From the NCBI GenBank assembly GCA_964019415.1, contig OZ025873.1, forward strand, positions 1,343,487-1,407,486: DNA of 64,000 nucleotides. Reading direction: 5' to 3'. This DNA comes from Ianthella basta. Lineage: Eukaryota; Porifera; Demospongiae; Verongiida; Ianthellidae. Every line of letters begins with the position of its first letter. Positions within the stretch are counted from its first letter, which is position 1. Under the pieces are notes generated by a model. The model worked only from the letters and a program-made list of their open reading frames with translations, was not told the origin of the DNA and did no database searches. Below, piece by piece: positions 1 through 64,000 of this stretch. A program made the translations under genes and the position numbers.

Positions 1-3000
1 GGCAAGTTGAGGCAAGATATAGCAAGATGAGGCAAGATGAGGCAAGATGAGGCACGAAATAGCAAGATGAGGCAAGATAAAGCAAGAAATAGCAAGATGA
101 GGCAAGATGAGGCAAGATATTGCAATATGAGGCAAGAAATAGCAAGATGAGGCAAAATGAGTCAAGATATTGCAAGATGAGGCAGGAAACAGAAAGATGA
201 GGCAAGACGAGGCTAGATATAGCAAGATTAAGCAAGATGAGGGAAGATGAGGCAAGATATAGCATGATGAAGCAAGATGAGGCAAGATGAGGCAAGATAT
301 AGCAAGATGAAGCAAGATATAGCAAGATGAAGCAAGATATAGCAAGATGAGGCAAGATATAGCAAGATGAGGCAAGATATTGAAAGATGAGGCAAGAAGT
401 AGCAAGATGAGGCAAGATTAGGTAAGATGAGGCAAGATATAGCAAGATTAAGCAAGATGAGGCTAGATGAGGCAAGAAATAGAAAGATGAGGCAAGATGA
501 GGCAAGATATTGCAAGATGAGGTAAGATATAGCAAGAAGAAGCAAGATGAGGCAAGATATAGCAAGATTAAGCAAGATGACACCAGATGAGGCAAGAAAT
601 AGCAAGATGAGGCAAGATGAGGCAAGATATTGCAAGATAAGGCAAGACATAGCAAGAAGAAGTAAGATGAGGCAAGATATTGCAAGATGAGGCAAGAAAT
701 AGCAAGATAAGGCAAGATGAGGCAAGATATAGCAAGACGAAGCAAGATGAGGCAAGAAATAGCAAGATGAGGCAAGATGAGGCAAGATATTGAAAGATGA
801 GGCAAGAAATAGCAAGATATTTCAAGATGAGGCAAGATATAGCAAGATGAGGCAAGATATTGCAAGATGCGGCAAGAAATAGCGAGATGAGGCAAGATGA
901 GGCAAGATATTGCAAGATGAGGCAAGATATAGCAAGAAGAAGCAAGATGAGGCAAGATGAGGCAAGATATTGCAAGATGAGGCAAGATATAGCAAGAAGA
1001 AGCAAGATGAGGCAAGATGAGGCAAAATATTGCAAGATGAGGCAAGATATAGCAAGAAGAAGCAAGATGAGGCAAGATGAGGCAAGATATTGCAAGATGA
1101 GGCAAGAAATAGCAAGATGAGGCAAGATGAGGCAAGATATTGCTAGATGAGGCAATTTATAGCAAGAAGAAGCAAGATGAGGCAAGAAATAGCAAGATGA
1201 GGCAACATGAGGCAAGAAATAGCAAGATGAGGCAAGATAAGGCAAGATATTGCAAGATGAGGTAAGCAATAGCAAGATGAGGCAAGATGAGGCAAGATAT
1301 TGCAAGATGAGGCAAGAAATAGCAAGATATTGCAAGATGAGGCAAGATATAGCAAGATGAGGCTAGATATTACAAGATGAGGCAAGAAATAGCAAGATGA
1401 GGTAAGATGAGGCAAGATATTGCAAAATGAGGGAAGATATAGCAAGAAGAAGCAAGATGAGGCAAGATGAGGCAAAATATTGCAAGATGAGACAAGATAT
1501 AGCAAGAAGCAACATGAGGCAAGAAATAGCAAGATGAGGCAAGATGAGGCAAGATATTGCAAGATGAGGCAAGATATAGCAAGAAGAAGCAAGATGAGGC
1601 AAGACATTGCAAGATAAGGAAGACATAGCAAGAAGAAGCAAGATGAGGCAAGATATTCCAAGATGAGGCAAGAAATAGCAAGATGAGGCAAGATGAGACA
1701 AGATATTGCAAGATGAGGCATGATATAGCAAGAAGAAGCAAGATGAGGCAAGATAGAGCAAAAAGAAGCAAGATGAGGCAAGAAATAGCAAGATGAGGCA
1801 AGATAAGGCAAGATATTGCAAGATGAGGCAAGATATAGCAAGAAGCAAGATGAGGCAAGAAATAGCAAGATGAGGTAAGATGAGGCAAGATATTGCAAGA
1901 TGAGGCAAGAAATAGCAAGATGAGGCAAGATGAGGCAAGAAATAGCAAGAATAGGTAAAATGAGTCAATATATTGCAAGATGAGGCAGGAAATAGAAAGA
2001 TGAGGCAAGATGAGGCAAGATATAGCAAGATTAAGCAAGATGAGGGAAGATGAGGCAAGATATAGCATGATGAAGCAAGATGAGGCAATATGAGGCAAGA
2101 ATAGCAAGATGAGGCAAGATATAGCAAGATGAGGCAAGATATTGAAAGATGAGGCAAGAAATAGCAAGATGAGGCAAAATGAGGCAAGATATTGCTAGAT
2201 GAGGCAATATATAGCAAGAAGAAGAAGAATGAGGCAAGAAATAGCAAGATGAGGCAAGATGAGGCAAGAAATAGCAAGATGAGGCAAGATGAGGCAAGAT
2301 ATTGCAAGATGAGGCGAGAAATAGCAAGATGAGGCAAGATGAGGCAAGATATTGCAAAATGAGGCAAGAAATAGCAAGATGAGGCAAGATATTGCAAGAT
2401 GAGGCAAGAAATAGCAAGATGCTGTAAGATGAGGCAAGATACTGCAAAATGAGGCAAGATATAGCAAGAGGAAGCAAGATGAGGCAAGATGAGGCAAGAT
2501 ATTGCAAGAAGAGGCAAGATATAGCAAGAAGCAAGATGAGGCAAGAAATAGCAAGATGAGGCAAGATGAGGCAAGATATTGCAAGATGAGGCAAGAAATA
2601 GCAAGATGAGGCAAGATGAGGCAAGATATTGCAAAATGAGGCAAGAAATAGCAAGATGAGGCAAGATATTGCAAGATGAGGCAAGAAACAGCAAGATGAG
2701 GTAAGATGAGTAAAGATATTTCAAGATGAGGCAAGAAATAGCGAGATATTGCAAGATGAGGCAAGATATAGCAAGATGAGGCAAGATATTGCAAGATGAG
2801 GCAAGAAATAGCAAGATGAAGCAAGATGAGGCAAGATATTGCAAAATGAGGCAAGATATAGCAAGAAGAAGCAAGATGAGGCAAGATGAGGCAAGATGAG
2901 GCAAGATATTGCAAGATGAGGCAAGATATTGCAAAATGAGGCAAGATATAGCAAGAAGAAGCAAGATGAGGCAAGATGAGGCAAGATAGTGCGAGATGAG

Positions 3001-6000
3001 GCAAGATATAGCAAAATCAGGCAAGATGAGGGAAGATGAGGCAAGATATAGCATGATGAAGCAAGATGAGGCAAGAAATAGCAAGATGAGGCAAGATATA
3101 GCAAGATGAGGTAAGATATTGAAAGATGAGACAAGATATAGTAAGAAGCAAGATGAGGCAAGATGAGGCAAGACATTGCTAGAATATATAGCAAGAAGAA
3201 GCAAGATGAGGCAAGAAATAGCAAGATGAGGCAAGATGAGGCAAGAAATAGATAGATGAGGCAAGATGAGGCAAGATATTGCAAGATGAGGCAAGAAATA
3301 GCAAGATGAGGCAAGATGAGGCAAGATATTGCAAAATGAGGCAAGAAATAGCAAGATGAGGCAAGATGAGGCAAGATATTGCAAGATGAGGCAAGAAATA
3401 GCAAGATATCGCAAGATGAGGCAAGAAATAGCAAGATATTGCAAGATGAGGCAAGATATAGGAAGTTGAGGCAAGATATTGCAAGATTAGGCAAGAAATA
3501 GATAGATGAGGTAAGATGAGGCAAGATATTGCAAGATGAGGCAAGATATTGCAAGATAAGGAAGACACAGCAAGAAGAAGCAAGATGAGGCAAGATATTG
3601 CAAGATGAGGCTAGAAACAGCAAGATATGGCAAGATGAAGCAAGATATTGCAAGATGAGGCAAGATATAGCAAGAAGAAGCAAGATGAGGCAAGATATAG
3701 CAAGAAGAAGCAAGATGAGGCAAGAAATAGAAAGATATTGCAAGATGAGGCAAGATATAGCAAGAAGCAAGATGAGGCAAGAAATAGCAAAATGAGGCAA
3801 GATGAGGCAAGATATTGCAAGATGAGGCAAGATATAGCAAGTAGAAGCAAGATGAGGCAAGAAATAGCAAGATGAGGCAAGGTGAGGCAAGATATTGCAA
3901 GATGAGGCAAGAAATAGCAAGATATTGCAAGATGAGGCAAGAAATAGCAAGATGAGGCCAGATGAGGCCAAGATATTGCAAGATGAGGCGAGAAATAGCA
4001 AGATGAGGTAAAATGAGTAAAGATATTGCAAGATGCGGCAAGAAATAGCAAGATGAGGCAAAATGAGTCAAGATATTGCAAGATGAGGCAGGAAATAGAA
4101 AGATGAGGCAAGATGAGGCAAGAAATAGCAAGATGAGGCAAGATGAGGCAAGATCTTGCAATATGAGGCAAGATATAGTAAGAAGAAGTAAGATGAGGCA
4201 AGATGAGGCAAGATATTGCAAGATGACGCAAGATATAGGAAGAAGCAAGATGAGGAAGAGATAGCAAGATGAGGCAAGATGAGGCAAGATATTGCAAGAT
4301 GAGGCAAGATATAGCAAGAAGAAGCAAGATGAGGCAAGAAATAGCAAGATGAGGCAAGATGAGGCAAGAAAAAGCAAGATGAGGCAAGATGAGGCAAGAT
4401 ATTGCAAGATGAGGCAAGAAATAGAAAGATGAGGCAAGATGAGGCAAGATATAGCAAAATTAAGCAAGATGAGGGAAGATGAGGCAAGATATAGCATGAT
4501 GAAGCAAGATGAGGCAAGATGAGGCAAGAAATAGCAAGATGAGGCAAGATATAGCAAGATGAGGCAAGATGTTGAAAGATGAGGCAAGAAATAGCAAGAT
4601 GAGGCAAGATGAGGCAAGATTAGGTAAGATGAGGCAAGTTATAGCAAGATTAAGCAAGATGAGGCTAGATGAGGCAAGAAATAGCAAGATGAGGCAAGAT
4701 GAGGCAAGATATTGCTAGATGAGGCAAGATGAGGCAAGATATTGCTAGATGAGGCAATATATAGCAAGAAGAAGCAAGATGAGGCAAGAAATAGCAAGAT
4801 GAGGCAAGATGAGGCAAGAAATAGCAAGATGAGGCAAGATGAGGCAAGACATTGAAAGATGAGGCAAGAAATAGCAAGATGAGGCAAGATGAGGCAAGAT
4901 ATTGCGAGATGAGGCAAGATATAGCAAGAAGAAGCAAGATGAGGCAAGAAATAGCAAGATGAGGAAAGAAATAGCGAGATATTGCAAGATGAGGCAAGAT
5001 ATAGCAAAATGAGGCAAGATATTGCAAGATGAGGCAAGAAATAGCAAGATGAAGCAAGATGAGGCAAGATATTGCAAAATGAGGCAAGATATAGCAAGAA
5101 GAAGCAAGATGAGGCAAGATGAGGCAAGATATTGCAAGAAGCAAGATGAAAAAGAAATAGCAAGATGAGGCAAGAAATAGCAAGATGAGGCAAGATGAGG
5201 CAAGATATTGCAAGATAAGGAAGACATAGCAAGAAGAAGCAAGATGAGGCAAGATAATGCAAGATGAGGCAAGAAATAGCAAGATATTGCTAGATTAGGC
5301 ACAATATAGCAAGATGAGGCTAGATATTGCAAGATGAGGCAAGAAATAGCAAGATGAGGCAAGATGAGGCAAGATATTGCAAGATGAGGCAAGATATAGC
5401 AAGATGAGGCAAGATATTACAAGATTAGGCAAGAAATAGCAAGATGAGGTAAGATGAGGTAAGATATTGCAAGATGAGGCAAGAAAAAGCAAGATACTGC
5501 AAGATGAGGCAAGATATAGCAAGATGAGGCAAGATATTGCAAGATTAGGCAAGAAATAGCAAGATGAGGTAAGATGAGGCAAGATATTGCAAAATGAGGC
5601 AAGATATAGCAAGAAGAAGCAAGTCGATGCAAAATGAGGCAAGATATTGCAAGATGAGGCAAGATATAGCAAGAAGCAATATGAGGCAGGAAATAGCAAG
5701 ATGAGGCAAGATGAGGCAAGATATAGCAAGAAGAAGCAAGATGAGGATAGAAATAGCAAGATGAGGTAAGATGAGGCAAGATATAGCAAGAAGAAGCAAG
5801 ATGAGGATAGAAATAGCAAGATGAGGTAAGATGAGGCAAGATATTGCAAGATAAGGAAGACATAGCAAGAAGAAGCAAGATGAGGCAAGATATTGCAAGA
5901 TGAAGCAAGAAATAGCAAGATATTGCTAGATGAGGCACGATATAGCAAGATGAGGCTAGATATTGCAAGATGAGGCAAGAAATAGCAAGATGAGGCAAGA

Positions 6001-7185
6001 TGAGGCAAGATATTGCCAGATGAGGCGAGATATAGTAAGATGAGGCAAGATATAGCAAGAGCAAGCAAGATGAGGCAAGATATAGCAAGATTAAGTAAGA
6101 TGAGACTAGATGAGGCAAGAAATAGCAAGATGAGGCAAGATATAGCAAGAAACAAGATGAGGTAAGAAATAGCAAGATGAGGAAAGCTGAGGCAAGATAT
6201 TGCTAGATGAGGCAATGTATAGCAAGAAGAAGCAAGATGAGGTAAGAAATAGCAAGATGAGGCAAGATGAGGCAAAAAATAGCAAGATGAGGCAAGATGA
6301 GGTAAGATATAGCAAGATGAGGCAAGAAATAGCAAGATGAGGCAAGATGAGGCAAGATATTGTGAGATGAGGCAAGATATAGCAAGAAGAAGCAAGATGA
6401 GGCAAGAAATAGCAAGATGAGGCAAGATATTGCAAGATATTGCAAAATGAGGCTAGATATAGCAAGAAGAAACAAGATGAGGCAAGATGAGGCAAGATAC
6501 TGCAAGATGAGGCAAGATATAGCAAGAAGCAAGATGAAGCAAGAAATAGCAAGATGAGGCAAGATGAGGCAAGATATTGCCAGATGAGGAAAGATATAGC
6601 AAGATGAGGCAAGATATTTCAAGATTAGGCAAGAAATAGCAAGATGAGGTAAGATGAGGCGAGACATTGCAAGATGAGGCAAGAAAAAGCAAGATACTGC
6701 AAGATGAGGGAAGAAATAGCAAGATGAGGCAAGATGTGGCAAGAAATTGCAAGATGAGGCAAGTCTTAGATATAGCAAGATGAGGCAAGATATTGCAAGA
6801 TGAGGCAAGAAACAGCAAGATGAGGCAAGATGAGGCAAGATATTGCGAGATGAGGCAAGATATAGCAAGAAGAAGCAAGATGAGGCAAGAAATAGCAAGA
6901 TGAGGCAAGATATAGCAAGATGAGGCAAGAAATAGCAAGATGAGGTAAGATGAGGCAAGATATTGCAAAATGAGGCAAGATATAGCAAGAAGAAGCAAGA
7001 TGAGGTAAGATGAGGCAAGATATTGCAAGATGAGGCAAGATATAGCAAGAAGCAACATGAGGCAAGAAATAGCAAGATGAGGCAAGATGAGGCAAGATAT
7101 TGCAAGATGAGGCAAGATATAGCAAGAAGAAGCAAGATGAGGCAAGAAATAGCAAGATGAGGCAAGATGAGGCAAGATATTGCAA

Positions 7186-10158
7186 GATAAGGAAGACATA
7201 GCAAGAAGAAGCAAGATGAGGCAAGATATTGCAAGATGAGGCAAGAAATAGCAAGATATTGCTAGATGAGGCACGATATAGCAAGATGAGGTTAGATATT
7301 GCAAGATGAGGCAAGAAATAGCAAGATGAGGCAAGATGAGGCAAGATATTGCAAGATGAGGCAAGAAATAGCAAGATACTGCAAGATGAGGCAAGATATA
7401 GCAAGATGAGGCAAGATATTGCAAGATGAGGCAAGAAATAGCAAGATGAGGTAAGATGAGGCAAGATATTGCAAAATGAGGCAAGATATAGCAAGAAGAA
7501 GCATGATGAGGCAAGATGAGGCAAGATATTGCAAGATGAGGCAAGATATAGCAAGAAGCAACATGAGGCAAGAAATAGCAAGATGAGGCAAGATGAGGCA
7601 AGATATTGCAAGATAAAAAAGACATAGCAAGAAGAAGCAAGATGAGGCAAGAAATAGCAAGATGAGGCAAGAAATAGCAAGATACTGCAAGATGAGGCAA
7701 GATATAGCAAGATGAGTCTAGATATTGCAAGATGAGGCAAGAAATAGCAAGATGAGCCAAGATGAGGCAAGATATTGCAAAATGAGGCAAGAAATAGCAA
7801 GATGAGGCAAGATATTGCAAGATGAGGCAAGAAATAGCAAGATGAGGCAAGATAAGGCAAGATATTGCAAGATAAGGAAGACATAGCAAGAAGAAGCAAG
7901 ATGAGGCAAGATATTGCAAGATGAGGCAAGAAATAGCAAGATATTGCTAGATGAGGCACGATATAGCAAGATGAGGCTAGATATTGCAAGATGAGGCAAG
8001 AAATAGCAAGATGAGGCAAGATGAGGCAAGATATTGCAAGATGAGGCAAGATATAGCAAGATGAGGCAAGATATTTCAAGATTAGGTAAGAAATAGCAAG
8101 ATGAGGTAAGATGAGGCAAGATATTGCAAGATGAGGCAAGAAATAGCAAGATACTGCAAGATGAGGCAAGATATAGCAAGATGAGGCAAGATATTGCAAG
8201 ATTAGGCAAGAAATAGCAAGATGAGGTAAGATGAGGCAAGATATTGCAAGATGAGGCAAGATATAGCAAGAAGCAACATGAGGCAAGAAATAGCAAGATG
8301 AGGCAAGATGAGGCAAGATATTGCAAGATAAAAAAGACATAGCAAGAAGAAGCAAGATGAGGCAAGATATTGCAAGATGAGGCAAGAAATAGCAAGATAC
8401 TGCAAGATGAGGCAAGATATAGCAAGATGAGGCTAGATATTGCAAGATGAGGCAAGAAATAGCAAGATGAGCCAAGATGAGGCAAGATATTGCAAAATGA
8501 GGCAAGAAATAGCAAGATGAGGCAAGATATTGCAAGATGAGGCAAGAAATAGCAAGATGAGGCAAGATAAGGCAAGATATTGCAAGATAAGGAAGACATA
8601 GCAAGAAGAAGCAAGATGAGGCAAGATATTGCAAGATGAGGCAAGAAATAGCAAGATATTGCTAGATGAGGCACGATATAGCAAGATGAGGCTAGATATT
8701 GCAAGATGAGGCAAGAAATAGCAAGATGAGGCAAGATGAGGCAAGATATTGCAAGATGAGGCAAGATATAGCAAGATGAGGCAAGATATTTCAAGATTAG
8801 GTAAGAAATAGCAAGATGAGGTAAGATGAGGCAAGATATTGCAAGATGAGGCAAGAAATAGCAAGATACTGCAAGATGAGGCAAGATATAGCAAGATGAG
8901 GCAAGATATTGCAAGATTAGGCAAGAAATAGCAAGATGAGGTAAGATGAGGCAAGATATTGCAAGATGAGGCAAGATATAGCAAGAAGCAACATGAGGCA
9001 AGAAATAGCAAGATGAGGCAAGATGAGGCAAGATATTGCAAGATAAGGAAGACATAGCAAGAAGAAGCAAGATGAGGCAAGATATTGCAAGATGAGGCAA
9101 GAAATAGCAAGATACTGCAAGATGAGGCAAGATATAGCAAGATGAGGCTAGATATTGCAAGATGAGGCAAGAAATAGCAAGATGAGCCAAGATGAGGCAA
9201 GATATTGCAAAATGAGGCAAGAAATAGCAAGATGAGGCAAGATATTGCAAGATGAGGCAAGAAATAGCAAGATGAGGCAAGATAAGGCAAGATATTGCAA
9301 GATAAGGAAGACATAGCAAGAAGAAGCAAGATGAGGCAAGATATTCCAAGATGAGGCAAGAAATAGCAAGATATTGCTAGATGAGGCACGATATAGCAAG
9401 ATGAGGCTAGATATTGCAAGATGAGGCAAGAAATAGCAAGATGAGGCAAGATGAGGCAAGATATTGCAAGATGAGGCAAGATATAGCAAGATGAGGCAAG
9501 ATATTTCAAGATTAGGTAAGAAATAGCAAGATGAGGTAAGATGAGGCAAGATATTGCAAGATGAGGCAAGAAATAGCAAGATACTGCAAGATGAGGCAAG
9601 ATATAGCAAGATGAGGCAAGATATTGCAAGATTAGGCAAGAAATAGCAAGATGAGGTAAGATGAGGCAAGATATTGCAAAATGAGGCAAGAAATAGCAAG
9701 ATGAGGCAAGATAAGGCAAGATATTGCAAGATAAGGAAGCCATAGCAAGAAGAAGCAAGATGAGGCAAGATATTGCAAGATGAGGCAAGAAATAGCAAGA
9801 TATTGCTAGATGAGGCACGATATAGCAAGATGAGGCTAGATATTGCAAGATGAGGCAAGAAATAGCAAGATGAGGCAAGATGAGGCAAGATATTGCAAGA
9901 TGAGGCAAGATATAGCAAGATGAGGCAAGATATTTCAAGATTAGGTAAGAAATAGCAAGATGAGGTAAGATGAGGTAAGATATTGCAAGATGAGGCAAGA
10001 AATAGCAAGATACTGCAAGATGAGGCAAGATATAGCAAGATGAGGCAAGATATTGCAAGATTAGGCAAGATATAGCAAGATGAGGCAAGATGAGGCAAGA
10101 TATTGCAAAATGAGGCAAGAAATAGCAAGATGAGGCAAGATAAGGCAAGATATTGCAA
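7186..10158. repeat. Higher-order repeat block: 685, 715, 715, 429 and 429-bp units
   Basis: Starts of the marker GATAAGGAAGACATAGC (one copy reads GAAGCC) at 7186, 7871, 8586, 9301 and 9730, with the next at 10159, define five consecutive units of 685, 715, 715, 429 and 429 bp. The 715-bp units share rare private variants at equal spacing, such as GATAAAAAAGACAT at 7612 and 8327 (GATAAGGAAGACAT at 9042), and GAGCCAAGATG about 95 bp after each of these. The 429-bp units look like 715-bp units lacking one internal segment of about 286 bp. This is a classic higher-order tandem built on 10-bp monomers. Similarity was judged by eye, not by alignment. Confidence 0.85.
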
Positions 10159-10489
10159 GATAAGGAAGACATAGCAAGAAGAAGCAAGATGAGGCAAGAT
10201 ATTGCAAGATGAGGCAAGAAATAGCAAGATATTGCTAGATGAGGCACGATATAGCAAGATGAGGCTAGATATTGCAAGATGAGGCAAGAAATAGCAAGAT
10301 GAGGCAAGATGAGGCAAGATATTGCCAGATGAGGCAAGATATAGCAAGATGAGGCAAGATATTTCAAGATTAGGTAAGAAATAGCAAGATGAGGTAAGAT
10401 GAGGCAAGATATTGCAAGATGAGGCAAGAAATAGCAAGATACTGCAAGATGAGGCAAGATATAGCAAGATGAGGCAAGATATTGCAAGA

Positions 10490-30268: not shown

Positions 30269-30270
30269 AA

Positions 30271-47312: not shown

Positions 47313-47318
47313 ATGAGG
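47313..47318. repeat. Possible LINE target-site duplication, left copy (ATGAGG)
   Basis: ATGAGG abuts the 3' end of the LINE here and its 5' end at 50688-50693. Because ATGAGG is part of the satellite monomer, a chance match cannot be excluded. Confidence 0.4.
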
Positions 47319-47339: not shown

Positions 47340-47524
47340 AGTCTGGGGAACCAATAGCCAGAGGCTACTACAAAGGCATCCAGAAAGAACAACACAAATT
47401 ACAAAGGAGTAAGACAGAAGAAGAAAAGAGAATAATGATTAAATGAATTTTAATGAATGAAGATAATAGAGATGTCAGCAGAGTACACATGCAGCGTCAG
47501 TGGTTCATGTAAATATGTGAATAG

Positions 47525-48265
47525 TTAATTTGTGGTGTTAATGAAATCCTGGCATAGTCTGGTAAATAAATAATAGTCTTTGGTGTTACGAATATGTGCT
47601 GGCAGCGTCCGCCAAAGTGATGCACCGGCAAAGCTGTAGGCTTTCTGACCAAACGAAGTCTTGACTGGAGGGAGATTAAGTTGACAAGTAGAAGAGGATC
47701 GAGTTGTGTAGTGGGAGGAAGCAGAAGAGAAGAGCCGTGATAGATAAGGCGGAGAGTGGGAAGATAAGCACCTGAACATGCACTGGGCCATATGAAGTTT
47801 TCTTCTCGAGGAGAGAGTCGTCAAGCCAAGTTCTCGAAGAGCAGTAGCAGAAGAAGAGGCACGACACCTACGAAGAACTATCTTGCAGCCAAAGTTCAGC
47901 AGAGTTTCCAGCCAGTGAGAGTCCTTTTGTGTGCATCCAGCCCAAACAACATCACAATAATCAAAATGTGGAAGAATGTAAGATTTGAGATAAAGTAGTA
48001 GAAGAGATTGGGGGAGAAACCAAGAAAGTCTTCTAAGGAGATTGAGACAACGGGAGACCTTCCCACTGACCATGTCAACATGATCGCTCCAAGTGAGAGT
48101 ATCGTTGATTAGAACGCCTAGGTACTTGAACACCTGCACCTGTTCTACAGCCGTGCCGTCTACTTCTAGATTCAGGTCAGCATCGAGTTTCTTCTTAGGT
48201 GAGTGCAGAAGCATGCACTTGGTTTTGGAGGTATTTAGTTTGAGTCCATTCTTTGCAATCCACAA
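47525..48265 (-). CDS. LINE ORF2 C-terminal part, out of frame with the RT part
   Basis: The frame of 246 residues begins WIAKNGLKLN, the region directly after the RT active-site domain in CR1/L2-type proteins. It contains the KYLGV motif typical of the RT thumb and an LWRTLP motif near the end, also usual for this group, and stops with TAA at 47525-47527. It has no start codon of its own: it continues the upstream endonuclease/RT frame, from which it is separated by the single-base change at 48276-48280. It belongs to the preceding gene and is not an independent gene. Confidence 0.85.
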   Translation of the reverse strand: MWIAKNGLKLNTSKTKCMLLHSPKKKLDADLNLEVDGTAVEQVQVFKYLGVLINDTLTWSDHVDMVSGKVSRCLNLLRRLSWFLPQSLLLLYLKSYILPHFDYCDVVWAGCTQKDSHWLETLLNFGCKIVLRRCRASSSATALRELGLTTLSSRRKLHMAQCMFRCLSSHSPPYLSRLFSSASSHYTTRSSSTCQLNLPPVKTSFGQKAYSFAGASLWRTLPAHIRNTKDYYLFTRLCQDFINTTN

Positions 48266-48270
48266 GTTGG

Positions 48271-50457: not shown

Positions 50458-50601
50458 GGCCTCAGTGGCTCGCTTCCTCGAACGCGCCAGGTATGAATAA
50501 ACCCCGACGGAGGGATACCTCGGCAGCAGGCAGGTTGTGAAGCTCTCGGTGGGTTTAAAACTGTCCTCGTAGCTATGCCAATGACTTTCTCCACAAAAGA
50601 T

Positions 50602-50670
50602 TCAAGACTTCTCCACAAACACTGCAAACCAAAACGACGCTATCAACACCGCTAGCACGCGAGCGGCCAT
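50602..50670 (-). other. LINE leader: 22-codon ATG frame ending in TGA, in frame with ORF2
   Basis: An ATG at 50668-50670 in a strong context (A at -3, G at +4) opens a short hydrophobic peptide starting MAARVLAVLIA that resembles a signal sequence and ends at TGA 50602-50604. The same frame then continues open into the 2A motif and endonuclease. It is either an upstream ORF or the true N-terminus interrupted by a nonsense mutation. Only the reading frames are seen; the function is open. Confidence 0.4.
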
Positions 50671-50687
50671 CTTCTTCGTACTCATAC

Positions 50688-53600
50688 ATGAGGCAAGATA
50701 TAGCAAGATTAAGCAAGATTAGGCAAGATGAGGCAAGAAATAGCAAGATGAGGCAAGATGAGGCAAGATATAGCAAGAAGAAGCAAGATGAGGCAAGATG
50801 AGGCAAGATATTGCAAGGCAAAGAAAGATGAGGCGAGATGTAGCAAGATGAAGCAAGATGAGGCAAGATGAGGCAAGATGAGGTAAGATGAGGAAAGATA
50901 TAGCAAGTTGAAGCAAAATGAAGCAAGGTGAGGCAAGATGTGGAAAGATATAGCAAGATGAAGCAAGATGAGGCAAGATGAGGTAAGATATAAAAAGATG
51001 AAGCAAGATGAAGCAAGATGAAGCAAGATTTAGTAAGATATAGCAAGATGAAGCAAGATGAGTCAAGATGAGGCAAGATGAGGCAAGATATTGCAAGATG
51101 AGGCAATATGAGGCAAGATATTGCAAGATGAGGCAAGAAGTAGCAAGATGAGGCAAGATGAGGCAAGATATTGCAAGATGACGCAAGATGAGGCAAGATG
51201 AGGCAAGATGAGGGAAGATGAAACAAGATGAGGTAAGATGAGGAAAGATATAGCAAGTTGAAGCAAGATGAAGCAAGATGAGTCAAGATGAGGAAAGATA
51301 TAGCAAGATGAGGCAAGATGAAGCAAGATATTGCAAGATGAGGCAAGATGAGGCAAGATATTGCAAAATAAGGCAAGATGAGGCAAGATACTGCAAGATG
51401 AGGAAAGAACTAGCAAGATGAGGCAAAATGAGGCAAGATATAGCAAGAAGAAGCAAGATGAGGCAAAATGAGGCAAGAAATAGCAAGATGAGGCAAGATG
51501 AGGTAAGATATTGCAAGATGAGGCAAGAAATAGCAAGATGAGGCAAGATGAGGCAAGATATAGCAAGATCAAGCAAGATGAGGCTAGATGAGGCAAGATA
51601 TAGCAAGATTAAGCAAGATTAGGCAAGATGAGGCAAGAAATAGCAAGATGAGGCAAGATGAGGCAACATATTGCAATTGCAAGATGAGGTAAGCTATAGC
51701 AAGAAGAAGCAAGATGAGGCAAGATATAACAAGATTAAGCAAGATGAGGCAAGATGAGGCAAGAAATAGCAAGATGAGGCAAAATAAGGCAAGAAAAAGC
51801 AAAATGAGGCAAGATGAGGCAAGATAATGCAAGATGAGGCAAGAAATAGCAAGATGAGGCAAGATATAGCAAGAAGAAGCAAGATGAGGCAAGAAATAGC
51901 AAGAAGCAAGATGAGGCAAGAAATAGCAAGATGAGGCAAGATATAGCAAGAAGAAGCAAGATGAGGCAAGAAATAGCAAGATGAGGCAAGAAAGAGCAAG
52001 ATGAGGAAAGATGAGGCAAGATATTGCAAGATGAGGCAAGAAATAGCAAGATGAGGTAAAATGAGTCAAGATATTGAAAGATGAGGCAAGATATAGCAAG
52101 TTGAGGCAAGATATTGCAAGATGAGGCAATAAATAGCAAGATGAGGCAAGATGAGGCAAGATATTGCAAGATGAGGCAAGATATAGCAAGATGAGGCAAA
52201 ATGAGTCAAGATATTGCAAGATGAGGCCAGAAATAGCAAGATGAGGTAAAATGAGTCAAGAAATTGCAAGATGAGGCAAGAAATAGCAAGATATTGCAAG
52301 ATGAGGCAAGATATAGCAAGAAGAATCAAGATGAGTCAAGAAATAGCAAGATGAGGCAAGATGAGGCAAGAAATAGCAAGATGAGGCAAGATGAGGCAAG
52401 ATATTGCAAGATGAGGCCAGAAATAGCAAGGTGAGGTAAAATGAGTCAAGAAATTGCACGATGAGGCAAGAAATAGCAAGATATTGCAAGATGAGGCAAT
52501 ATATAGCAAGATGAGTCAAGATATTGCAAGATGTGTCAAGAAATAGCAAGAAGAAGCAAGATGAGGAAAGAAATAGCAAAATGAGGCAAGATGAGGCAAG
52601 ATATTGCAAGATGAGGCAAGATATAGCAAGTAGAAGCAACATGAGGCAAGATATTGCAAGATGAAGCAAGATATAGCAAGAAGCACGATGAGGCAAGAAA
52701 TAGCAAGATGAGGCAAGATGAGGCAAGATATTGCAAGATGAGGCAAGAAATAGCAAGATGAGGCAAGATGAGGCAAGATATAGCAAGAAGAATCAAGATG
52801 AGGCAAGAAATAGCAAGATGAGGCAAGATGAGGCCAAGAAAATTAATAGCAAGATGAGGCAAGAGAGGCAAGAAATAGCAAGATGAGGCAAGATGAGGCA
52901 AGATGAGGCAAGATGAGGCAAGAAATAGCAAGATGAGGCAAAATGAGTCAAGATATTGCAAGATGAGGCAAGATATAGCAAGAAGAAGCAAGATTAGGCA
53001 AGATATTGCAAGATGAGGCAAGATATAGCAAGAAGAAGCAAGATGAGGCAAGATGAGGCAAGATATTGCGAGATGAGGCAAGAAATAGCAAGATATTGCA
53101 AGATGAGGCAAGATACTGCAAGATATAGCAAGATGAGGCAAGTTATTGCAAGAAGGGACAAGAAATAGCAAGATGAGGCAAAATGAGGCAATATATTGTA
53201 GGATGAGGCAGGATATAGCAAGAAGAAGCAAGATGAGGTAAGATGAGGCAAGATATTGCAAGATGAGGCAAGATATAGCAAGAAGCAAGATGAGGCAAGA
53301 AATAGCAAGATGAGGCAAGATGAGGCAAGATATTGCAAGATGAGGCAAGATATAGCAAGAAGAAGCAAGATGAGGCGAGAAACAGCAAGATGAGGCAAGA
53401 TGAGGCAAGAAATAGCAAGATGAGGCAAGATGAGGCAAGATCTTGAGAGATGAGACAAGAAATAGCAAGATGAGGCAAAATGAGTCAAGATATTGCAAGA
53501 TGAGGCAAGAAATAGCAAGATGAGGCAAGATGAGGCAAGATATAGCAAGATTAAGCAAGATGAGGCAAGATGAGGCAAGATATAGCAAGCTGAAGCAAGA

Positions 53601-56600
53601 TGAGGCAAGATGAGGCAAGAAATAGCAAGATGAGGCAAGATATAGCAAGATAAGGCAAGATGAGGCAAGATTAGGTAAGATAAGGCAAGATGAGGCAAGA
53701 TATTGCAAGATGAAGAAAGATGAGGCAAGATATTGCAAGATGAAGCAAGATGAGGCAAGATATAGCAAGATGAAGCAAGATGAGGCAAGATGAGGCTAGA
53801 TATAGCAAGATGAAGCAAGATGAGGCAAGATGAGGCAAAATATTGCAAGATGAGGCACGAAATAGCAAGATGAGGCAAGATGAGGCAAGATATAGCAAGA
53901 TGAAGCAAGATGAGGCAAGATGAGGCAAGATATAGCAAGATGAAGCAAGATGAGGCAAGATGAGGCAAGAAATAGCAAGATGAGGCAAGATGAGGCAAAA
54001 TATTGCAAGATGAGGCACGAAATAGCAAGATGAGGCAGGATTAGGTTAGATGAGGTAAGATATTGCAAGATGACGCAAGATATAGCAAGATGAGGCAAGA
54101 AATAGCAAGATCTGGCAAGCTGAGGCAAGATATTGCAAAATGAGACAAGAAATAGTAAGATGAGGCAAGATGAGGTAAGATATTGCAAGATGAGACAAGA
54201 TGAGGCAAGATATAGCAAGATGAGGCAAGAAATAGCAAGATGAGGCAAGATGAGGCAAGATATTGCTAGATGAGACAAGAAATAGCAAGATGAGGCAAAA
54301 TGAGTCAAGATATTGCAAGTTGAGGCAAGAAATAGCAAGATGAGGCAAGATGAGGCAAGATATAGCAAGATTAAGCAAGATTAGGCAAGATGAGGCAAGA
54401 TATAGCAAGATGAAGCAAGACGAGGCAAGATGAGGCAAGAAATAGCAAAATGAGGCAAGATGAGGCAAAATATTGCAAGATGAGGCAAGAAATAGCAAGA
54501 TGAGGCAGGATTAGGTTAGATGAGGTAAGATATTGCAAGATGACGCAAGATATAGCAAGATGAGGCAAAAAATAGCAAGATGAGGCAAGATGAGGCAAGA
54601 TATTGCAAGATGAGAGAAGAAATAGCAAGATGAGGCAAAATGAGTCAAGATATTGCAAGATGAGGCAAGAAATAGCAAGATGAGGCAAGATGAGGCAAGA
54701 TATAGCAAGATTAAGCAAGATCAGGCAAGATGAGGCAAGATATAGCAAGATTAAGCAAGATGAGGCAAGATGAGGCAAGAAATAGCAACATTAGGCAAGA
54801 TGAGGCAAAATATTGCAAGATGAGGCAAGAAATAGCAAGATGAGGCAAGATGAGGTTAGATGAGGTAAGATATTGCAAGATGAGGTAAGATATAGCAAGA
54901 TGAGGCAAGATGAGGCAAGATAAAGCAAGATGAGGCAAGATATTGCAAGATTAGACAAGAAATAGCAAGATGAGGCTAGATATTGCAAGATAAGGCAAGA
55001 AATAGCAAGATGAGGCAAGATGAGGCAAGATATTGCAAGATGAAACAAGAAATAGCAAGATGAGGCAAGATGAGGCAAGATGAGGCAAGATATAGCAAGA
55101 TTAAGCAAGATGAGGCAAGATGAGGCAAGATATAGCAAGCTGAAGCAAGATGAGGCAAGATGAGGCAAGAAATAGCAAGATGAGGCAAGATATAACAAGA
55201 TGAGGCAAGATGAGGCAAGATTAGGTAAGATATTGCAAGATGAGGCAAGATGAGGCAAGATATTGCAAGATGAAGAAAGATGAGGCAAGATATGGCAAGA
55301 TGAAGCAAGATGAGGCAAGATATAGAGAGATGAAGCAAGATGAGGCAAGATGAGGCTAGATATAGCAAGATGAAGCAAGATGAGGCAAGATGAGGCAAGA
55401 TATAGCAAGATGAGGCAAGATGAGGCAAAAAATAGCAAGATGAGGCAAGATGAGGTAAGATATAGCAAGATGAAGCAAGATGAAGCAAGATGAGGCAAGA
55501 AATAGCAAGTTGAGGCAAGATGAGGCAAGAAATAGCAAGATGAGGCAAGATGAGGCAAAATATTGCAAGATGAGGCACGAAATAGCAAGATGAGGCAGGA
55601 TGAGGTTAGATGAGGTAAGATATTGCAAGATGACGCAAGATATAGCAAGATGAGGCAAGAAATAGCAAGATGTGGCAAGATGAGGCAAGATATTGCAAAA
55701 TGAGACAAGAAATAGCAAGATGAGGCAAGATGAGGCAAGATGAGGTAAGATATTGCAAGATGAGGCAAGATGAGGCAAGATATAGCAAGATGAGGCAAGA
55801 AATAGCAAGATGAAGCAAGATGAGGCAAGATATTGCTAGATGAGACAAGAAATAGCAAGATGAGGCAAAATGAGTCAAGATATTGCAAGTTGAGGCAAGA
55901 AATAGCAAGATGAGGCAAGATAAGGCAAGATATAGCAAGATTAGGCAAGATGAGGCAAGATATAGCAAGATGAAGCAAGACGAGGCAAGATGAGGCAAGA
56001 AATAGCAAGATGAGGCAAGATGAGGCCAAATATTGCAAAATGAGGCAAGAAATAGCAAGATGAGGCAGGATGAGGTTAGATAAGGTAAGATATTGCAAGA
56101 TGACGCAAGATATGGCAAGATGAGGCAAGAAATAGCAAGATGAGGCAAGATGAGGCAAGATACTGCAAGATGGGACAAGAAATAGCAAGATGAGGCAAAA
56201 TGAGTCAAGATATTGCAAGATGAGGCAAGAAATGGCAAGATGAGGCAAGATGAGGCAAGACATAGCAAGATTAAGCAAGATGAGGCAAGATGAGGCAAGA
56301 TATAGCAAAATTAAGCAAGATGAGACAAGATGAGGCAAGAAATAGCAAGATTAGGCAAGATGAGGCAAAATATTGCAAGATGAGGCAAGAAATAGCAAGA
56401 TGAGGCAAGATGAGGTTAGATGAGGTAAGATATTGCAAGATGACGCAAGATATGGCAAGATGAGGCAAGAAATAGCAAGATGAGGCAAGATGAGGCAAGA
56501 TATTGCAGGATGGGACAAGAAATAGCAAGATGAGGCAAAATGAGTCAAGATATTGCAAGATGAGGCAAGAAATAGCAAGATGAGGCAAGATGAGGCAAGA

Positions 56601-59600
56601 TATAGCAAGATTAAGCAAGATGAGGCAAGATGAGGCAAGATATAGCAAAATTAAGCAAGATGAGACAAGATGAGGCAAGAAATAGCAAGATTAGGCAAGA
56701 TGAGGCAAAATATTGCAAGATGAGGCAAGAAATAGCAAGATGAGGCAAGATGAGGTTAGATGAGGTAAGATATTGCAAGATGAGGCAAGATATAGCAAGA
56801 TGAGGCAAGATGAGGCAAGATATTGCAAGATGAGGCAAGATATTGCAAGATGAGACAAGAAATAGCAAGATGAGGCAAGATGAGGCAAGATATTGCAAGA
56901 TGAGGCAAGAAATAGCAAGATGAGGCAAGATGAGGCAAGATATTGCAAGATGAAACAAGAAATAGCAAGATGAGGCAAGATGAGGCTAGATATAGCAAGA
57001 TGAGGCAAGATGAGGCAAGATATAGCAAGATGAGGCAAGATGAGGTAAGATAGAGCAAGATGAGGCAAGATGAGGCAAGATATAGCAAGATGAGGCAAGA
57101 TATAGCAAGATGAGGCAAGATGAGGCAAGATATAGCAAGATGATGAAATATGAGGAGAGATATAGCAAGATGAGGCAAGATATGGCAAGATATAGCGAGA
57201 TGTAGCATGATGAAGCAAGATGAGGCAAGATATAGCAAAATGAGGCAAGATGAGGCAAGATATAGCAATATGAAGCAAAATGAGGCAAGATGAGGCAAGA
57301 TATAGCAAGATGACGCAAGATGAGGCAAGATGAGGAAAGATATAGCAAGATGAAGCAAGATGAGGGAAGATGAGGCAATAAATAGCAAGATGAGGCAAGA
57401 TGAGGCAAAATATTGCAAGATGAGGCAAGAAATAGCAAGACGAGGCAAGATGAGGTTAGATGAGGCAAGATATTGCAAGATGAGGCAAGAAATAGCAAGA
57501 TGAGGCAAGATGAGGCAAGAAATAGCAAGATGAGGCAAGATGAGGCAAGATATTGCAAGATGAGACAAGGTATAGCAAGAAAAAGCAAGATGAGGCAAGA
57601 TATAGCAAGATGAAGCAAGATGAGGCAAGATATTGCAAGATGAGGCAAGAAATAGCAAGATGAGGCAAGATATTGCAAGATGAGGCAAGAAATAGCAAGA
57701 TGAGGCAAGATGAGGCAAGATGAGGTAAGATATAGCAAGATGAGGCAAGATGAGGCAAGATATAGCAAGATGAGGCAAGATATTGCAAGATGAGACAAGA
57801 AATAGCAAGATGAGGCAAGATGAGGCAAGATCTTGCAAGATGAGGTAAGAAATAGCAAGTTGAGGCAAGATGAGGCAAGATATTGCAAGATGAGGCAAGA
57901 AATAGCAAGATGAGGCAAGATGAGGCAAGATATAGCAAGATTAATCAAGATAAGGCAGGATTAGGCACGATGAGGCAAAATATTGCAAGATGAGGCAAGA
58001 AATAGCAAGATGAGGCAAGATGAGGCAAAATATTGCAAGATGAGACAAGAAATAGCAAGATGAGGCAAGATGAGGTTAGATGAGGTAAGATATTGCAAGA
58101 TGAGGCAAGATATAGCAAGATGAGGCAAGATGAGGCAAGATATAGCAAGATGAGGCAAGATATTGAACGATGAGGCAAGAAATAGCAAGATGAGGCAAGA
58201 TGAGGCAAGATATAGCAAGATTAAGCACGATGAGGCAAGATGAGGCAAGATGAGGCAAAATATTGCAAGATGAGGGAAGAAATAGCAAGATGAGGCAAGA
58301 TGAGGTTAGATGAGGTAAGATTTTGCAAGATGAGGCAAGAAATAGCAAGATGAGGCAAGATATTGCAAGATGAGGCAAGAAATAGCAAGATGAGGCAAGA
58401 TGAGGCAAGATGAGGTAAGATACTGCAAGATGAGGCAAGAAATAGCAAGATGAGGCAAGATGAGGCAAGATATAGCAAGATGAGGCAAGATGAGGCAAGA
58501 TATAGCAAGATGAGGCAAGATATTGCAAGATGAGACAAGAAATAGCAAGATGAGGCAAGATGAGGCAAGATCTTGCAAGATGAGGTAAGAAATAGCAAGT
58601 TGAGGCAAGATGAGGCAAGATATTGCAAGATGAGGCAAGAAATAGCAAGATGAGGCAAGATGAGGCAAGATATAGCAAGATTAATCAAGATAAGGCAGGA
58701 TGAGGCACGATGAGGCAAAATATTGCAAGATGAGGCAAGAAATAGCAAGATGAGGCAAGATGAGGCAAAATATTGCAAGATGAGACAAGAAATAGCAAGA
58801 TGAGGCAAGATGAGGTTAGATGAGGTAAGATATTGCAAGATGAGGCAAGATATAGCAAGATGAGGCAAGATGAGGCAAGATATAGCAAGATGAGGCAAGA
58901 TATTGAACGATGAGGCAAGAAATAGCAAGATGAGGCAAGATGAGGCAAGATATAGCAAGATTAAGCACGATGAGGCAAGATGAGGCAAGATGAGGCAAAA
59001 TATTGCAAGATGAGGGAAGAAATAGCAAGATGAGGCAAGATGAGGTTAGATGAGGTAAGATTTTGCAAGATGAGGCAAGATATAGCAAGATTAGGTAAGA
59101 TGAGGCAAGATATTGCAAAATGAAGAAAGATGAGGTAAGATATTGCAAGATGAGGCAAAAAATAGCAAGATGAAGCAAGATGAGGCAAGATATAACAAGA
59201 TGAAGCAAGTTGATGCAAGATATTGCAAGATGAAGCAAGATGAGGCAAAATATTGCAAGATGAGTCAAGAAACAGCAAGATGAAGCAGGATGAGACAAAA
59301 TATTGCAAGATGACACAAGAAATAGCAAGATGCATGAGGCAAGATGAGGTATAAGATATAGCAAGATGAAGCAAGGTGAGACAAGATGAGGCAAGATCTA
59401 GCAAGATGAGGCATGATGAGGCAAGATATTGCAAGATGAGGCAAGATATAGCAAGATGAAGCAAGATGAGGCAAGATATAGCAAGATGATGAAATATGAG
59501 GAGAGATATAGCAAGATGAGGCAAGATATGGCAAGATATAGCGAGATGTAGCAAGATGAAGCAAGATGAGGCAAGATATAGCAAAATGAAGCAAGATGAG

Positions 59601-60630
59601 GCAAGATATAGCAATATGAAGCAAAATGAGGCAAGATGAGGCAAGATATAGCAAGATGACGCAAGATGAGGCAAGATGAGGAAAGATATAGCAAGATGAA
59701 GCAAGATGAGGGAAGATGAGGCAATAAATAGCAAGATGAGGCAAGATGAGGCAAAATATTGCAAGATGAGGCAAGAAATAGCAAGACGAGGCAAGATGAG
59801 GTTAGATGAGGCAAGATATTGCAAGATGAGGCAAGAAATAGCAAGATGAGGCAAGATGAGGCAAGAAATAGCAAGATGAGGCAAGATGAGGCAAAATATT
59901 GCAAGATGAGGCAAGAAATAGCAAGATGAGGCAAGATGAGGCAAGATATTGCAAGATGAGACAAGGTGTAGCAAGAAGAAGCAAGATGAGGCAAGATATA
60001 GCAAGATGAAGCAAGATGAGGCAAGATATTGCAAGATGAGGCAAGAAATACCAAGATGAGGCAAGAAGAGGCAAGATGAGGTACGATGAGGCAAGATGAG
60101 GCAAGATATAGCAAAATGGAGAAAGATGAGGCAAGAAATAGCAAGATGAAGCAAGATGAGGCAAGATATAGCAAGATGAGGCAAGATGAGGTAAGATATT
60201 GCAAGAAGAGGCAAGATATAGCAAGAAGAAGCAAGATGAGGCAAGATGAGGCAAGATATTGCAAGATGAGGCAAGAAATAGCAAGATGAGGCAAGATGAG
60301 GCAAGATATTGCAAGATAAGGCAAGAAATAGCAAGATGAGGCAAGATGAGGCAAAATATTGCAAGATGAGGCAAGAAATAGCAAGATGAGGCAAGATGAG
60401 GCAAGATATTGCAAGATGAAACAAGGTATAGCAAGAAGAAGCAAGATGAGGCAAGATATAGCAGGATGAAGCAAGATGAGGCAAGATATTGCAAGATGAG
60501 GCAAGAAATACCAAGATGAGGCAAGAAGAGGCAAGATGAGGTACGATGAGGCAAGATGAGGCAAGATATAGCAAGATGAAGAAAGATGAGGCAAGAAATA
60601 GCAAGATGAAGCAAGATGAGGCAAGATATA
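50688..60630. repeat. 10-bp minisatellite, right block
   Basis: The GCAAGATGAG-family array resumes directly at the LINE 5' end with ATGAGG. Monomers TGAG, TATT, TATA, AATA and GATGAAGC dominate, and the GATAAGGAAGACATAGC marker of the left half was not seen. Units recur at 480 bp (GATTAGGTTAG near 54030 and 54510) and 340 bp (near 56301 and 56641), and a block at 57121-57440 recurs at +2346. No gene or RNA gene was recognised. Confidence 0.97.
57731..59080. repeat. 740-bp higher-order period
   Basis: Segment 57731-58340 matches 58471-59080 at offset 740. Shared rare variants include TATTGAACGA at 58161 and 58901, and AATCAAGATAAGGCAGG near 57943 and 58683. The copies look nearly identical by eye, pointing to a recent tandem exchange. 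Confidence 0.8.
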
Positions 60631-63600
60631 GCAAGATGAGGCAAGATGAAATAAGATGAGGCAAGATGAGGTAAGATGAGGCATGACGAGGCAAGATGAG
60701 GCAAGATGAGACAAGATGAGGCAAGATGAGACAAGATGATGCATGATGAGGCAAGACGAGACAAGACGAGACAAGATGAGGCTAGATGAGACAAGATGAA
60801 TCAAGACGAGAATAGATGAAGCAAGATGAGGTAAGATGAAGCAAGATAAGGGAAGATGACGCAACATGAGGCAAGATGAGGCAAGATGAGGTAAGATGAG
60901 GCAAGATGAGACAAGATGAGGCAAGATGAGATAAGGTGAAGAAGGACGGGACAAAATGAGGCAAGATGAGGCAAGATGAGGCAAGACGAAGCAAGACAAG
61001 ACAAGATGAGGCAAGATGAGGCAAGATGAAGCAAGATGAGGTAAGATGAGGCAAGATGAGACAAGATGAGGCAAGATGAGATAAAATGAAGAAGGACGGG
61101 ACAAAATGAGGCAAGATGAGGCAAGATGAGGCAAGATGAAGCAAGACGAGACAAGATGAGGCAAGATGAGGCAAGATGAAGCAAGACAAGACAAGATGAG
61201 GCAAGATGAGGCAAGATGAGGCAAGATGAAGCAAGACGAGACAAGATGAGGCAAGATGAGGCAAGATGAAGCAAGACAAGACAAGATGAGGCAAGATGAG
61301 GCAAGATGAAGCAAGATGAGGTAAGATGAGGCAAGATGATACAAGATGAGGCAAGATGAGATAAGGTGAAGAAGGACGGGACAAAATGAGGCAAGATGAG
61401 GCAAGATAAGGCAAGACGAGACAAGATGAGGCAAGATGAGGCAAGATGAAGCAAGACGAGACAAGATGAGGCAAGATGAGGCAAGATTAAGCAAGATGAG
61501 GCAAGATGAGACAAGATGAAGCAAGATGAGACGAGATGAAGTAAAACGAGACGAGATGAGGCAAGATTAGGTAAGATGAGAGAAGATGAAGAAAGACGAG
61601 ATAAGATGAGGCAAGATGAGGAAAGATTTGGCAAGATAAGGCAAGATGATGAAAGATTTGGCAAGATGAGACAAGATTTGGCAAGATGAGACAAGATGAA
61701 GCAAGATGAGACAAGATGAAGCAAGACGAGACAAGATGAGGCAAGATGAAGCAAGACAAGACAAGATGAGGCAAGATGAGGCAAGATGAAGCAAGATGAG
61801 GTAAGATGAGGCAAGATGAGACAAGATGAGGCAAGATGAGATAAGGTGAAGAAGGACGGGACAAAATGAGGCAAGATGAGGCAAGATGAGGCAAGATGAA
61901 GCAAGACGAGACAAGATGAGGCAAGATGAGGCAAGATGAAGCAAGACGAGACAAAATAAGGCAAGATGAGGCAAGATTAAGCAAGATGAGGCAAGATGAG
62001 ACAAGGTGAAGCAAGATGAGACGAGATGAAGTAAAACGAGACGAGATGAGGCAAGATTACGTAAGATGAGAGAAGATGAAGCAAGACGAGATAAGATGAG
62101 GCAAGATGAGGAAAGATTTGGCAAGATAAGGCAAGATGATGAAAGATTTGGCAAGATGAGACAAGATTTTGCAAGATGGGACAAGATGAAGCAAGATGAG
62201 ACAAGATGAAGCAAGACGAGACAAGATGAGGCAAGATGAGACAAGACGAGACAAGATGAGGCAAGATGAGACCAGATGAAGCAAGACGAGACAAAATGAG
62301 GCAAGACAAGACAAGACGAGGCAAGATAAGACAAGACGAGACGAGATGAGGCAAGATGAGGAAAGACGAGACAAGATGAGGCAAGATGAGACAAGATGAG
62401 GCAAGATGAGGAAAGATGAGGCAAGATGAGACAAGATGAGACAAGATGAGACAAGATGAGGCAAGATGAGGCAAGATGAGACAAGATGATGCAAGACGAG
62501 ACAAGACGAAGAGAGATGAGGCAAGATGAAGCAAGATGAGACAAGATGAAGCAAGATGAGACAAGATGAAGTAAAACAAGACGAGATGAGGCAAGATTAG
62601 GTAAGATGAGAGAAGATGAAGCAAGACGAGATAAGATGAGGCAAGATGAGGAAAGATGAGGCAAGATAAGGCAAGATGATGAAAGATTTGGCAAGATGAG
62701 ACAAGATTTGGCAAGATGAGACAAGATGAAGCAAGATGAGACAAGATGAAGCAAGACGAGACAAGATGAGGCAAGATGAGACAAGACGAGACAAGATGAG
62801 GCAAGATGAGACCAGATGAAGCAAGATGAGACAAAATGAGGCAAGACAAGACAAGACGAGGCAAGATAAGACAAGACGAGACGAGATGAGGCAAGATGAG
62901 GAAAGACGAGACAAGATGAGGCAAGATGAGACAAGATGAGGCAAGATGAGGAAAGATGAGGCAAGATGAGACAAGATGAGACAAGATGAGACAAGATGAG
63001 GCAAGATGAGGCAAGATGAGACAAGATGATGCAAGACGAGACAAGATGAAGAGAGATGAGGCAAGATGAAGCAAGATGAGACAAGATGAAGCAAGATGAG
63101 ACAAGATGAAGTAAAACAAGACGAGATGAAGCAAGATTAGGTAAGATGAGAGAAGATGAAGCAAGACGAGATAAGATGAGGCAAGATGAGGAAAGATTTG
63201 GCAAGATAAGGCAAGATGATGAAAGATTTGGCAAGATGAGACAAGATTTGGCAAGATGAGACAAGATGAAGCAAGATGAGACAAGATGAAGCAAGACGAG
63301 ACAAGATGAGGCAAGATGAGACAAGACGAGACAAGATGAGGCAAGATGAGACCAGATGAAGCAAGATGAGACAAAATGAGGCAAGACAAGACAAGACGAG
63401 GCAAGATAAGACAAGACGAGACGAGATGAGGCAAGATGAGGAAAGACGAGACAAGATGAGGCAAGATGAGACAAGATGAGGCAAGATGAGGCAAGATGAG
63501 ACAAGATGAGACAAGATGAGGCAAGATGAGACAAGATGAGACATGATTTGGCAAGATAAGGTAAGAAGAGGAAAGATTTGGCAAGATGAGACAAGATTTG

Positions 63601-64000
63601 GCAAGATGAGACAAGATTAAGCAAGATGAGGCAAGATGAGACAAGATGCGGCAAGATGAGACAAGATGAAGTGAGACGAGTCAAGATGAGGCAAGATGAG
63701 GCTAGATGAGGAAAGATTTGGCAAAATGAGACAAGATTTGGCAAGATGAGAATAGATGAGGAAAGACGAGGAAAGATGAGGCAAGATGAGACAAGATGAG
63801 GCAAGATGAGGAAAGATGAGGCAAGATGAGACAAGATGAGACAAGATGAGGCAAGATGAGACAAGATGAGACAAGATTTGGCAAGATAAGGTAAGAAGAG
63901 GAAAGATTTGGCAAGATGAGACAAGATTTGGCAAGATGAGACAAGATGAAGCAAATTGAGACAAGATGAAGTAAGACGAGACAAGATGAGGCAAGATGAG
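60631..64000. repeat. 10-bp minisatellite, divergent right-end domain (GACGAG/GATTTG type)
   Basis: From about 60630 the TATT, TATA and AATA monomers vanish and are replaced by GCAAGATGAG, ACAAGATGAG, GCAAGATGAA, GCAAGACGAG, GCAAGACAAG and, from about 61620, GCAAGATTTG. The 10-bp period is kept with few phase shifts. CpG-containing GACGAG units occur next to GATGAG and GACAAG forms. The array runs off the window end. No gene is seen. Confidence 0.95.
62041..63490. repeat. 540-bp higher-order repeat, about 2.7 copies
   Basis: Units start at 62041, 62581 and 63121 with the same monomer order (ACGAGATGAG, GCAAGATTAG, GTAAGATGAG, AGAAGATGAA). The first of these reads GATTAC in place of GATTAG. 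The third copy loses register near 63490. A related shorter unit starts at 61551 (490 bp before 62041). 540 bp is 54 monomers, so the higher-order unit keeps the 10-bp phase. Confidence 0.88.

What the first reader, a model, noticed from the sequence alone, without database searches (positions are those of the whole stretch)
1..64000. A roughly 55-kb 10-bp minisatellite fills 86% of the window
Apart from three retroelement-type inserts, every stretch read is GCAAGATGAG or a close variant in the same orientation, with no inversion seen. So long an array of so short a period with a purine-rich strand is unusual, and I do not recognise it as a named satellite.
Basis: seen in the sequence. Interest (0 to 1): 0.75.

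Follow-up and report, generated by a model that had tools for sequence, protein, structure and literature searches.

The report
Layered 104-kb sponge satellite array
The window is the middle of a 104-kb block of a 10-letter repeat on a sponge chromosome, built like an onion with one repeat type at both ends and another in the core, a pattern known from primate centromeres; no function is shown.

Summary
In detail: 55,349 of 64,000 bases (86.5%) are one-orientation 10-bp satellite; GCAAGATGAG occurs 1,966 times, its reverse complement never. The array exceeds the window: C6:1,310,022-1,414,496, 104,474 bp with inserts, in a 209-Mb genome whose mitochondrial COX1 points to a demosponge. Its two outer edges, more than 90 kb apart, share 7-31% of 30-mers per block pair and a 213-bp exact run, but about 0% with the core. 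The outer type matches loci on C2, C3 and C4, the core type loci on C1, C2, C5 and C7 (loci picked by type-specific patterns). Of 14 placed core-type hit clusters seen, 11 lie within 250 kb of a contig end; a companion 21-bp satellite lies near ends with a preferred polarity. Best reading: a dispersed satellite family that grows in waves, newer variants amplifying inside an older array by unequal exchange and transfer between chromosomes. No coding, RNA or centromere function is shown. A new family of a known kind with unusually legible architecture.

The parts
1..25527 (+). 10-bp satellite: left shoulder, then core type from about 5515 on; units GCAAGATGAG, GCAAGATATT, GCAAGAAATA, GCAAGATATA, GCAAGAAGAA
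25528..30604 (-). LTR retrotransposon in the core; 334-bp LTRs 25528-25861 and 30271-30604 identical; ATGAG on both flanks (weak as a target-site duplication, since ATGAG is part of the satellite unit); Pfam domain order SCAN-CCHC-protease-integrase-RT-RNaseH
30605..31898 (+). 10-bp satellite, core type
31899..32089 (.). ~190-bp non-satellite insert, unclassified
32090..43515 (+). 10-bp satellite, core type
43516..47318 (+). 10-bp satellite, right shoulder
47319..50687 (-). non-LTR retroelement (endonuclease and reverse transcriptase; coding region spread over two frames), with a 2A-like DVEQNPGP stretch
50688..56914 (+). 10-bp satellite, right shoulder
56915..61014 (+). 10-bp satellite, middle layer; left counterpart C6:1314500-1317500 lies outside the window
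61015..64000 (+). 10-bp satellite, outer layer (ACAAGATGAG and GCAAGACGAG units), continuing to C6:1414496; left counterpart C6:1310022-1314500

Best explanation
A 10-bp satellite array of a demosponge, belonging to a dispersed family with CAAGAT-type units. Shown from sequence: one orientation in the window, long block duplications, two outer edges of one type around a core of another, and relatives of both types on other chromosomes. Inferred: an older outer-type array was entered from within by newer variants, which spread between chromosomes by ectopic exchange and then amplified locally by unequal exchange or replication-based block duplication, pushing the older halves outward. It has no demonstrated gene or RNA product; the likeliest role is structural or heterochromatic, or none.
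For: Limits and single orientation. In 36 blocks of 2.5 kb, outer-left (0-1) against outer-right (32-35) 7-31% shared 30-mers and a 213-bp exact run; outer-left against core blocks 14-26 0%, and 39 bp at most against the four central blocks; block 2 against blocks 31-32 34-38%. Long alignments: outer-left to outer-right about 82%, either outer layer to core about 73%. Exact blocks >=1,000 bp recur at distances 1723 and 2159, >=800 bp also at 2618, >=600 bp also at 715. Outer-type loci on C2, C3, C4 share 7-20% of their 30-mers with C6's outer layers and 0-2% with its core; loci on C1, C2, C5, C7 share 11-27% with the core and 0% with the outer layers; the middle layers are, besides each other (36-37%), most like C5's array (34-37%). 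Toy simulations: end-end similarity exceeded end-core in 29 of 36 runs with interior-focused growth and in 10 of 36 with uniform exchange. Minus-strand open frames (737, 852, 810 codons) lie within unit-shuffled controls (shares of shuffles at least as long 0.525, 0.26, 0.15).
Against: The mirror pattern was looked for in two other arrays, C5 (left edge is a 200-N gap) and C7, seven 1.2-kb blocks each, and was not clear in either. Outside the outer layers the contrast is small in alignments: middle-left to middle-right 79-81% against 77-79% to the core; shoulder to shoulder 81-82% against 80-82% to the core. Over all block pairs mirrored depth correlates a little better than distance (-0.48, centre fitted, against -0.42), but over cross-centre pairs plain distance does better (-0.63 against -0.47); the permutation result (0 of 2,000) does not exclude other orderings. 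Simulations reproduce the direction, not the strength (>5-fold in 1 of 36 focal runs, 0 of 36 uniform); other settings gave end-end above end-core in 1 of 10 uniform and 3 of 10 right-end runs and 0 of 5 uniform and 2 of 5 centre runs. The loci compared were fetched with outer-type or core-type patterns, so the two-type split is partly selected. Transfer between chromosomes is inferred from shared k-mers only.
Confidence: 0.65

Rival explanations
1. An ordinary satellite array whose ends merely decayed: homogenisation works in the interior while the edges drift.
For: Edges are less like the core, and similarity falls with distance; edge effects are expected from unequal exchange (recalled).
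Against: Independent decay does not make two edges share a 213-bp exact run and about 82% alignments with each other while both are about 73% to the core; edge-type arrays also occur on C2, C3 and C4.
Confidence: 0.15
2. The array is the centromere of chromosome C6, layered as primate alpha-satellite centromeres are.
For: Symmetric layers around a homogeneous young core are described for human centromeric regions (PMC9549924, passages); this is the longest array that I measured (C1's runs into the contig end), and C6 has one interior core-type array.
Against: Core-type hit clusters are not one per contig: C2, C6 and C20 have two, and none was seen on C3, C4 or C9; 11 of the 14 placed clusters seen lie within 250 kb of a contig end (listings of 9 and 29 stop at 100 places). 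An LTR element with identical LTRs sits in the core, whereas L1 inserts are very rare in live human arrays (PMC9549924, passage). No CENP-A or Hi-C data.
Confidence: 0.13
3. A former chromosome end trapped inside C6 by fusion or inversion.
For: The order 10-bp(+) then 21-bp(+) is also seen toward the left ends of C2 and C23, and core-type clusters are mostly near contig ends.
Against: No tandem TTAGGG at the array edges: TTAGGGTTAGGG 0 hits and CCCTAACCCTAA 1 hit, 70 kb off, in the 224 kb read, some of it N. Both flanks carry the same 34-bp repeat and (CA)n, which suggests growth inside one locus. C20's left end has the opposite order.
Confidence: 0.12
4. An assembly artefact.
For: Short-period arrays are easily mis-assembled; C5's array borders a 200-N gap and C1's runs to the contig end.
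Against: No N inside the C6 array, and different inserts break it at several points.
Confidence: 0.06

Closest known systems
Primate alpha-satellite arrays with symmetric layers (PMC9549924, passages read)
   Same: Homogeneous core between layers of other subfamilies; [quoted passage not shown]
   Different: Unit 10 bp instead of 171 bp (171 recalled), 104 kb instead of megabases, most other core-type clusters near contig ends, no centromere evidence.
Drosophila 10-bp satellites, e.g. Prodsat AATAACATAG (PMC8122249, passages)
   Same: 10-bp unit.
   Different: Unrelated sequence; here many unit variants and layering.
Subtelomeric satellites in general (PMC8122249, passages)
   Same: Most core-type clusters seen, and the 21-bp companion, lie near contig ends.
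   Different: This array is interior, 1.31 Mb from the contig end, and outer-type arrays are widely dispersed.

Membership tests
Satellite DNA | Long head-to-tail arrays of one unit | tested here: met
Satellite DNA | Same family on several chromosomes | tested here: met
Subtelomeric satellite | Arrays confined to chromosome ends | tested here: inconclusive
   Within 250 kb of a contig end: 21-bp companion 25 of 29 clusters, outer-type 53-mer 5 of 25; core type 11 of 14 clusters seen; this array is interior. Only 2 of 19 large-contig starts looked at begin with telomere repeats, so contig ends are not always chromosome ends
Layered satellite array | Mirror layers around a homogeneous core | tested here: met
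   This array only; carried by the outer layers, weaker for the middle ones
Centromeric satellite | CENP-A or kinetochore association | not testable with these tools
   no chromatin data
Centromeric satellite | One major array per chromosome | tested here: not met
   By exact core-type patterns; listings stop at 100 places
Named satellite in Dfam/Repbase | Consensus match | not testable with these tools
   no such library on hand

The most novel reading that the evidence does not exclude
The C6 array is, or recently was, the centromere of its chromosome: a layered centromere built on a 10-bp unit in an early-branching animal, showing that nested waves of satellite turnover are not a primate or 171-bp peculiarity.
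Probability: 0.15. Interest if true: 0.75.

Novelty: new member of a known kind. Interest (0 to 1): 0.42.

Why it matters
Layered satellite growth is discussed mainly for centromeres (PMC9549924, passages). A 104-kb array that can be read base by base, with its layers comparable to arrays on other chromosomes, lets one test whether layering needs a kinetochore at all. It also gives a look at satellite organisation in a sponge; my paper searches listed no study of sponge satellite DNA (8 of 8 papers listed, 10 of 239 listed).

Tried and rejected
Coding function of the minus-strand open frames: lengths within shuffles. RNA families: none at the gathering cut-off in the window; one sub-threshold snR50 match (18.7 against 45 bits) around the small insert. 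The 30-mer in prokaryote or viral collections: 0 matches in viral contigs and 0 in genome contigs. Telomere-fusion scar at the array edge: not found. Naming the species: no paper held the assembly length and none of the 6 listed held the mitochondrial length. Two freshwater sponges with 23 chromosomes were listed (listing only) with other sizes; here C1-C23 are large and C24 is 29 kb. I stop at Demospongiae. Polarity of 10-bp clusters: core-type 7 of 11 within 250 kb, p 0.27; outer-type 5 of 5 within 250 kb but 15 of 25 overall, p 0.21.

Rows dropped or limited: 3 of 85 21-bp hits (C38), 4 of 81 53-mer hits (C60) and overlapping near-duplicates were left out; the 62/86-mer rows were representative positions typed (one search lists the first 100 of 183 hits), without C42 and C60; lengths of C13, C14 and C19 were bounded by the size order. 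Several core-type clusters rest on a single exact hit. One search used 3 of 8 C1 loci, and of L034-L041 only L034, L035, L036, L038 and L040.

Full report
Observation. The window is a satellite array. TRF reports it over the whole length; after removing three inserts 55,349 of 64,000 bases remain, about 81-84% identical to GCAAGATGAG by a score-based estimate. GCAAGATGAG occurs 1,966 times, its reverse complement 0 times, 20 mononucleotide shuffles give 0-2.

Extent. The window is G000:C6:1343487-1407486 in a genome of 209,087,449 bp and 96 contigs. I read 160 kb around it. The array runs from C6:1,310,022 to 1,414,496, 104,474 bp with inserts, with no N inside. To the left lie (CA)n and about five copies of a 34-bp repeat; to the right a 21-bp repeat (C6:1,414,501-1,416,252), then about two copies of the 34-bp repeat and (CA)n. 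One inverted satellite piece of about 220 bp lies in the right outer layer, beyond the window.

Organism. COX1 on the 21,233-bp contig C96 reads with nine TGA codons as tryptophan; the best of 120 listed protein clusters, 93% identical, is labelled Demospongiae. Of 19 large-contig starts looked at, C2 and C3 begin with (CCCTAA)n. The species is not identified.

Fine structure. Unit variants (ATATT, AAATA, ATATA, AAGAA) alternate with GCAAGATGAG, giving periods of 20, 30 and 50. Exact blocks of >=1,000 bp recur at distances of 1723 and 2159, >=800 bp also at 2618, >=600 bp also at 715, the mark of recent block duplication. The LTR element in the core has identical LTRs (0 of 334 differences), so the array existed before a recent insertion.

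Layers. In 36 blocks of 2.5 kb (91,278 satellite bases kept of 104,474), the first two blocks share 25% of 30-mers with each other, 7-31% with the last four blocks and 0-3% with all others; block 2 shares 34-38% with blocks 31-32; blocks 14-26 are the most mutually similar stretch (25-86%), though blocks 6-11 (25-59%) and 3-4 (71%) form lesser groups of their own. The longest exact run from outer-left to outer-right is 213 bp, to the four central blocks 39 bp. Long alignments give about 82% between the outer layers and about 73% from either to the core, but only 79-81% against 77-79% for the middle layers and no contrast for the shoulders. Mirrored depth correlates with similarity at -0.48 over all pairs (centre fitted; distance -0.42) and -0.47 over cross-centre pairs (distance -0.63); 0 of 2,000 shuffles of the right-hand block order were as mirror-like. 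The symmetry is therefore carried chiefly by the outer layers.

Relatives of the layers. The outer-type loci of C2, C3 and C4 share 7-20% of their 30-mers with C6's outer layers and 0-2% with its core; loci of C1, C2, C5 and C7 share 11-27% with the core and 0% with the outer layers; C6's middle layers share 36-37% with each other and 34-37% with C5's array, while C5's array itself overlaps most with the much larger left shoulder (25%), then the middle layers (19-20%). These loci were fetched by type-specific patterns, so the split is partly selected. The picture resembles the published proposal for alpha satellite, where new variants jump between centromeres and amplify inside old ones (PMC9549924, passages).

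Genome-wide position. Of 14 placed core-type hit clusters visible lie within 250 kb of a contig end; C2:12.84 Mb, C5:3.03 Mb and this array do not. The 21-bp companion: 25 of 29 clusters within 250 kb of an end (about 5% of the sequence of the 20 contigs with known length), 22 of 25 oriented alike from the end inward, binomial p 8e-5 with clusters taken as independent. Outer-type clusters are dispersed, 5 of 25 within 250 kb; neither 10-bp type shows significant polarity overall. A 35-bp satellite with CAAGAT-type sub-units lies on C7 beside a core-type array.

Mechanism. The simulations are toy models: with a homogenised founder array and later growth, end-end similarity exceeded end-core in 29 of 36 interior-focused and 10 of 36 uniform runs; the settings did not separate the models well. 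I take interior amplification of newer variants as most likely, at 0.65. The C5 and C7 arrays show no clear mirror layers.

Function. No evidence of coding or of a known RNA. Centromere function is possible, but core-type clusters are not one per contig. Verdict: a real satellite, unnamed as far as I could search, ordinary in kind, with an unusually legible layered build.

Noticed in passing
25528-30604: LTR element with integrase before reverse transcriptase and a SCAN-type domain in Gag, the order I recall for Gmr1-like Ty3/gypsy elements; identical LTRs.
   Followed up: partly
47319-50687: Non-LTR element with a 2A-like LLLRSGDVEQNPGP stretch ahead of its endonuclease-RT domains; coding region spread over two frames.
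   Followed up: no
31899-32089: ~190-bp insert with CTGAAGAAGG...CCGAAACG, resembling the hammerhead-type core that I recall from Penelope-like elements; no Rfam match.
   Followed up: partly
L017:7015-8766 (C6:1414501-1416252): 21-bp satellite, near contig ends genome-wide with a preferred polarity; some of its units share ACAAGATG with the 10-bp satellite.
   Followed up: partly
L065:1-7000 (C7:186001-193000): 35-bp satellite with CAAGAT-type sub-units next to a core-type array; similar sequence begins contigs C9, C16 and C17.
   Followed up: no
C3:2.99-3.005 Mb, C5:1.95 and 3.21 Mb: The 34-bp repeat that flanks the window's array forms interior arrays elsewhere: 4,202 matches with up to 2 mismatches, of which only the best 100 or so are listed.
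   Followed up: no
L017, about 475-680 (about C6:1407951-1408170): Single ~220-bp inverted satellite piece in the right outer layer.
   Followed up: no
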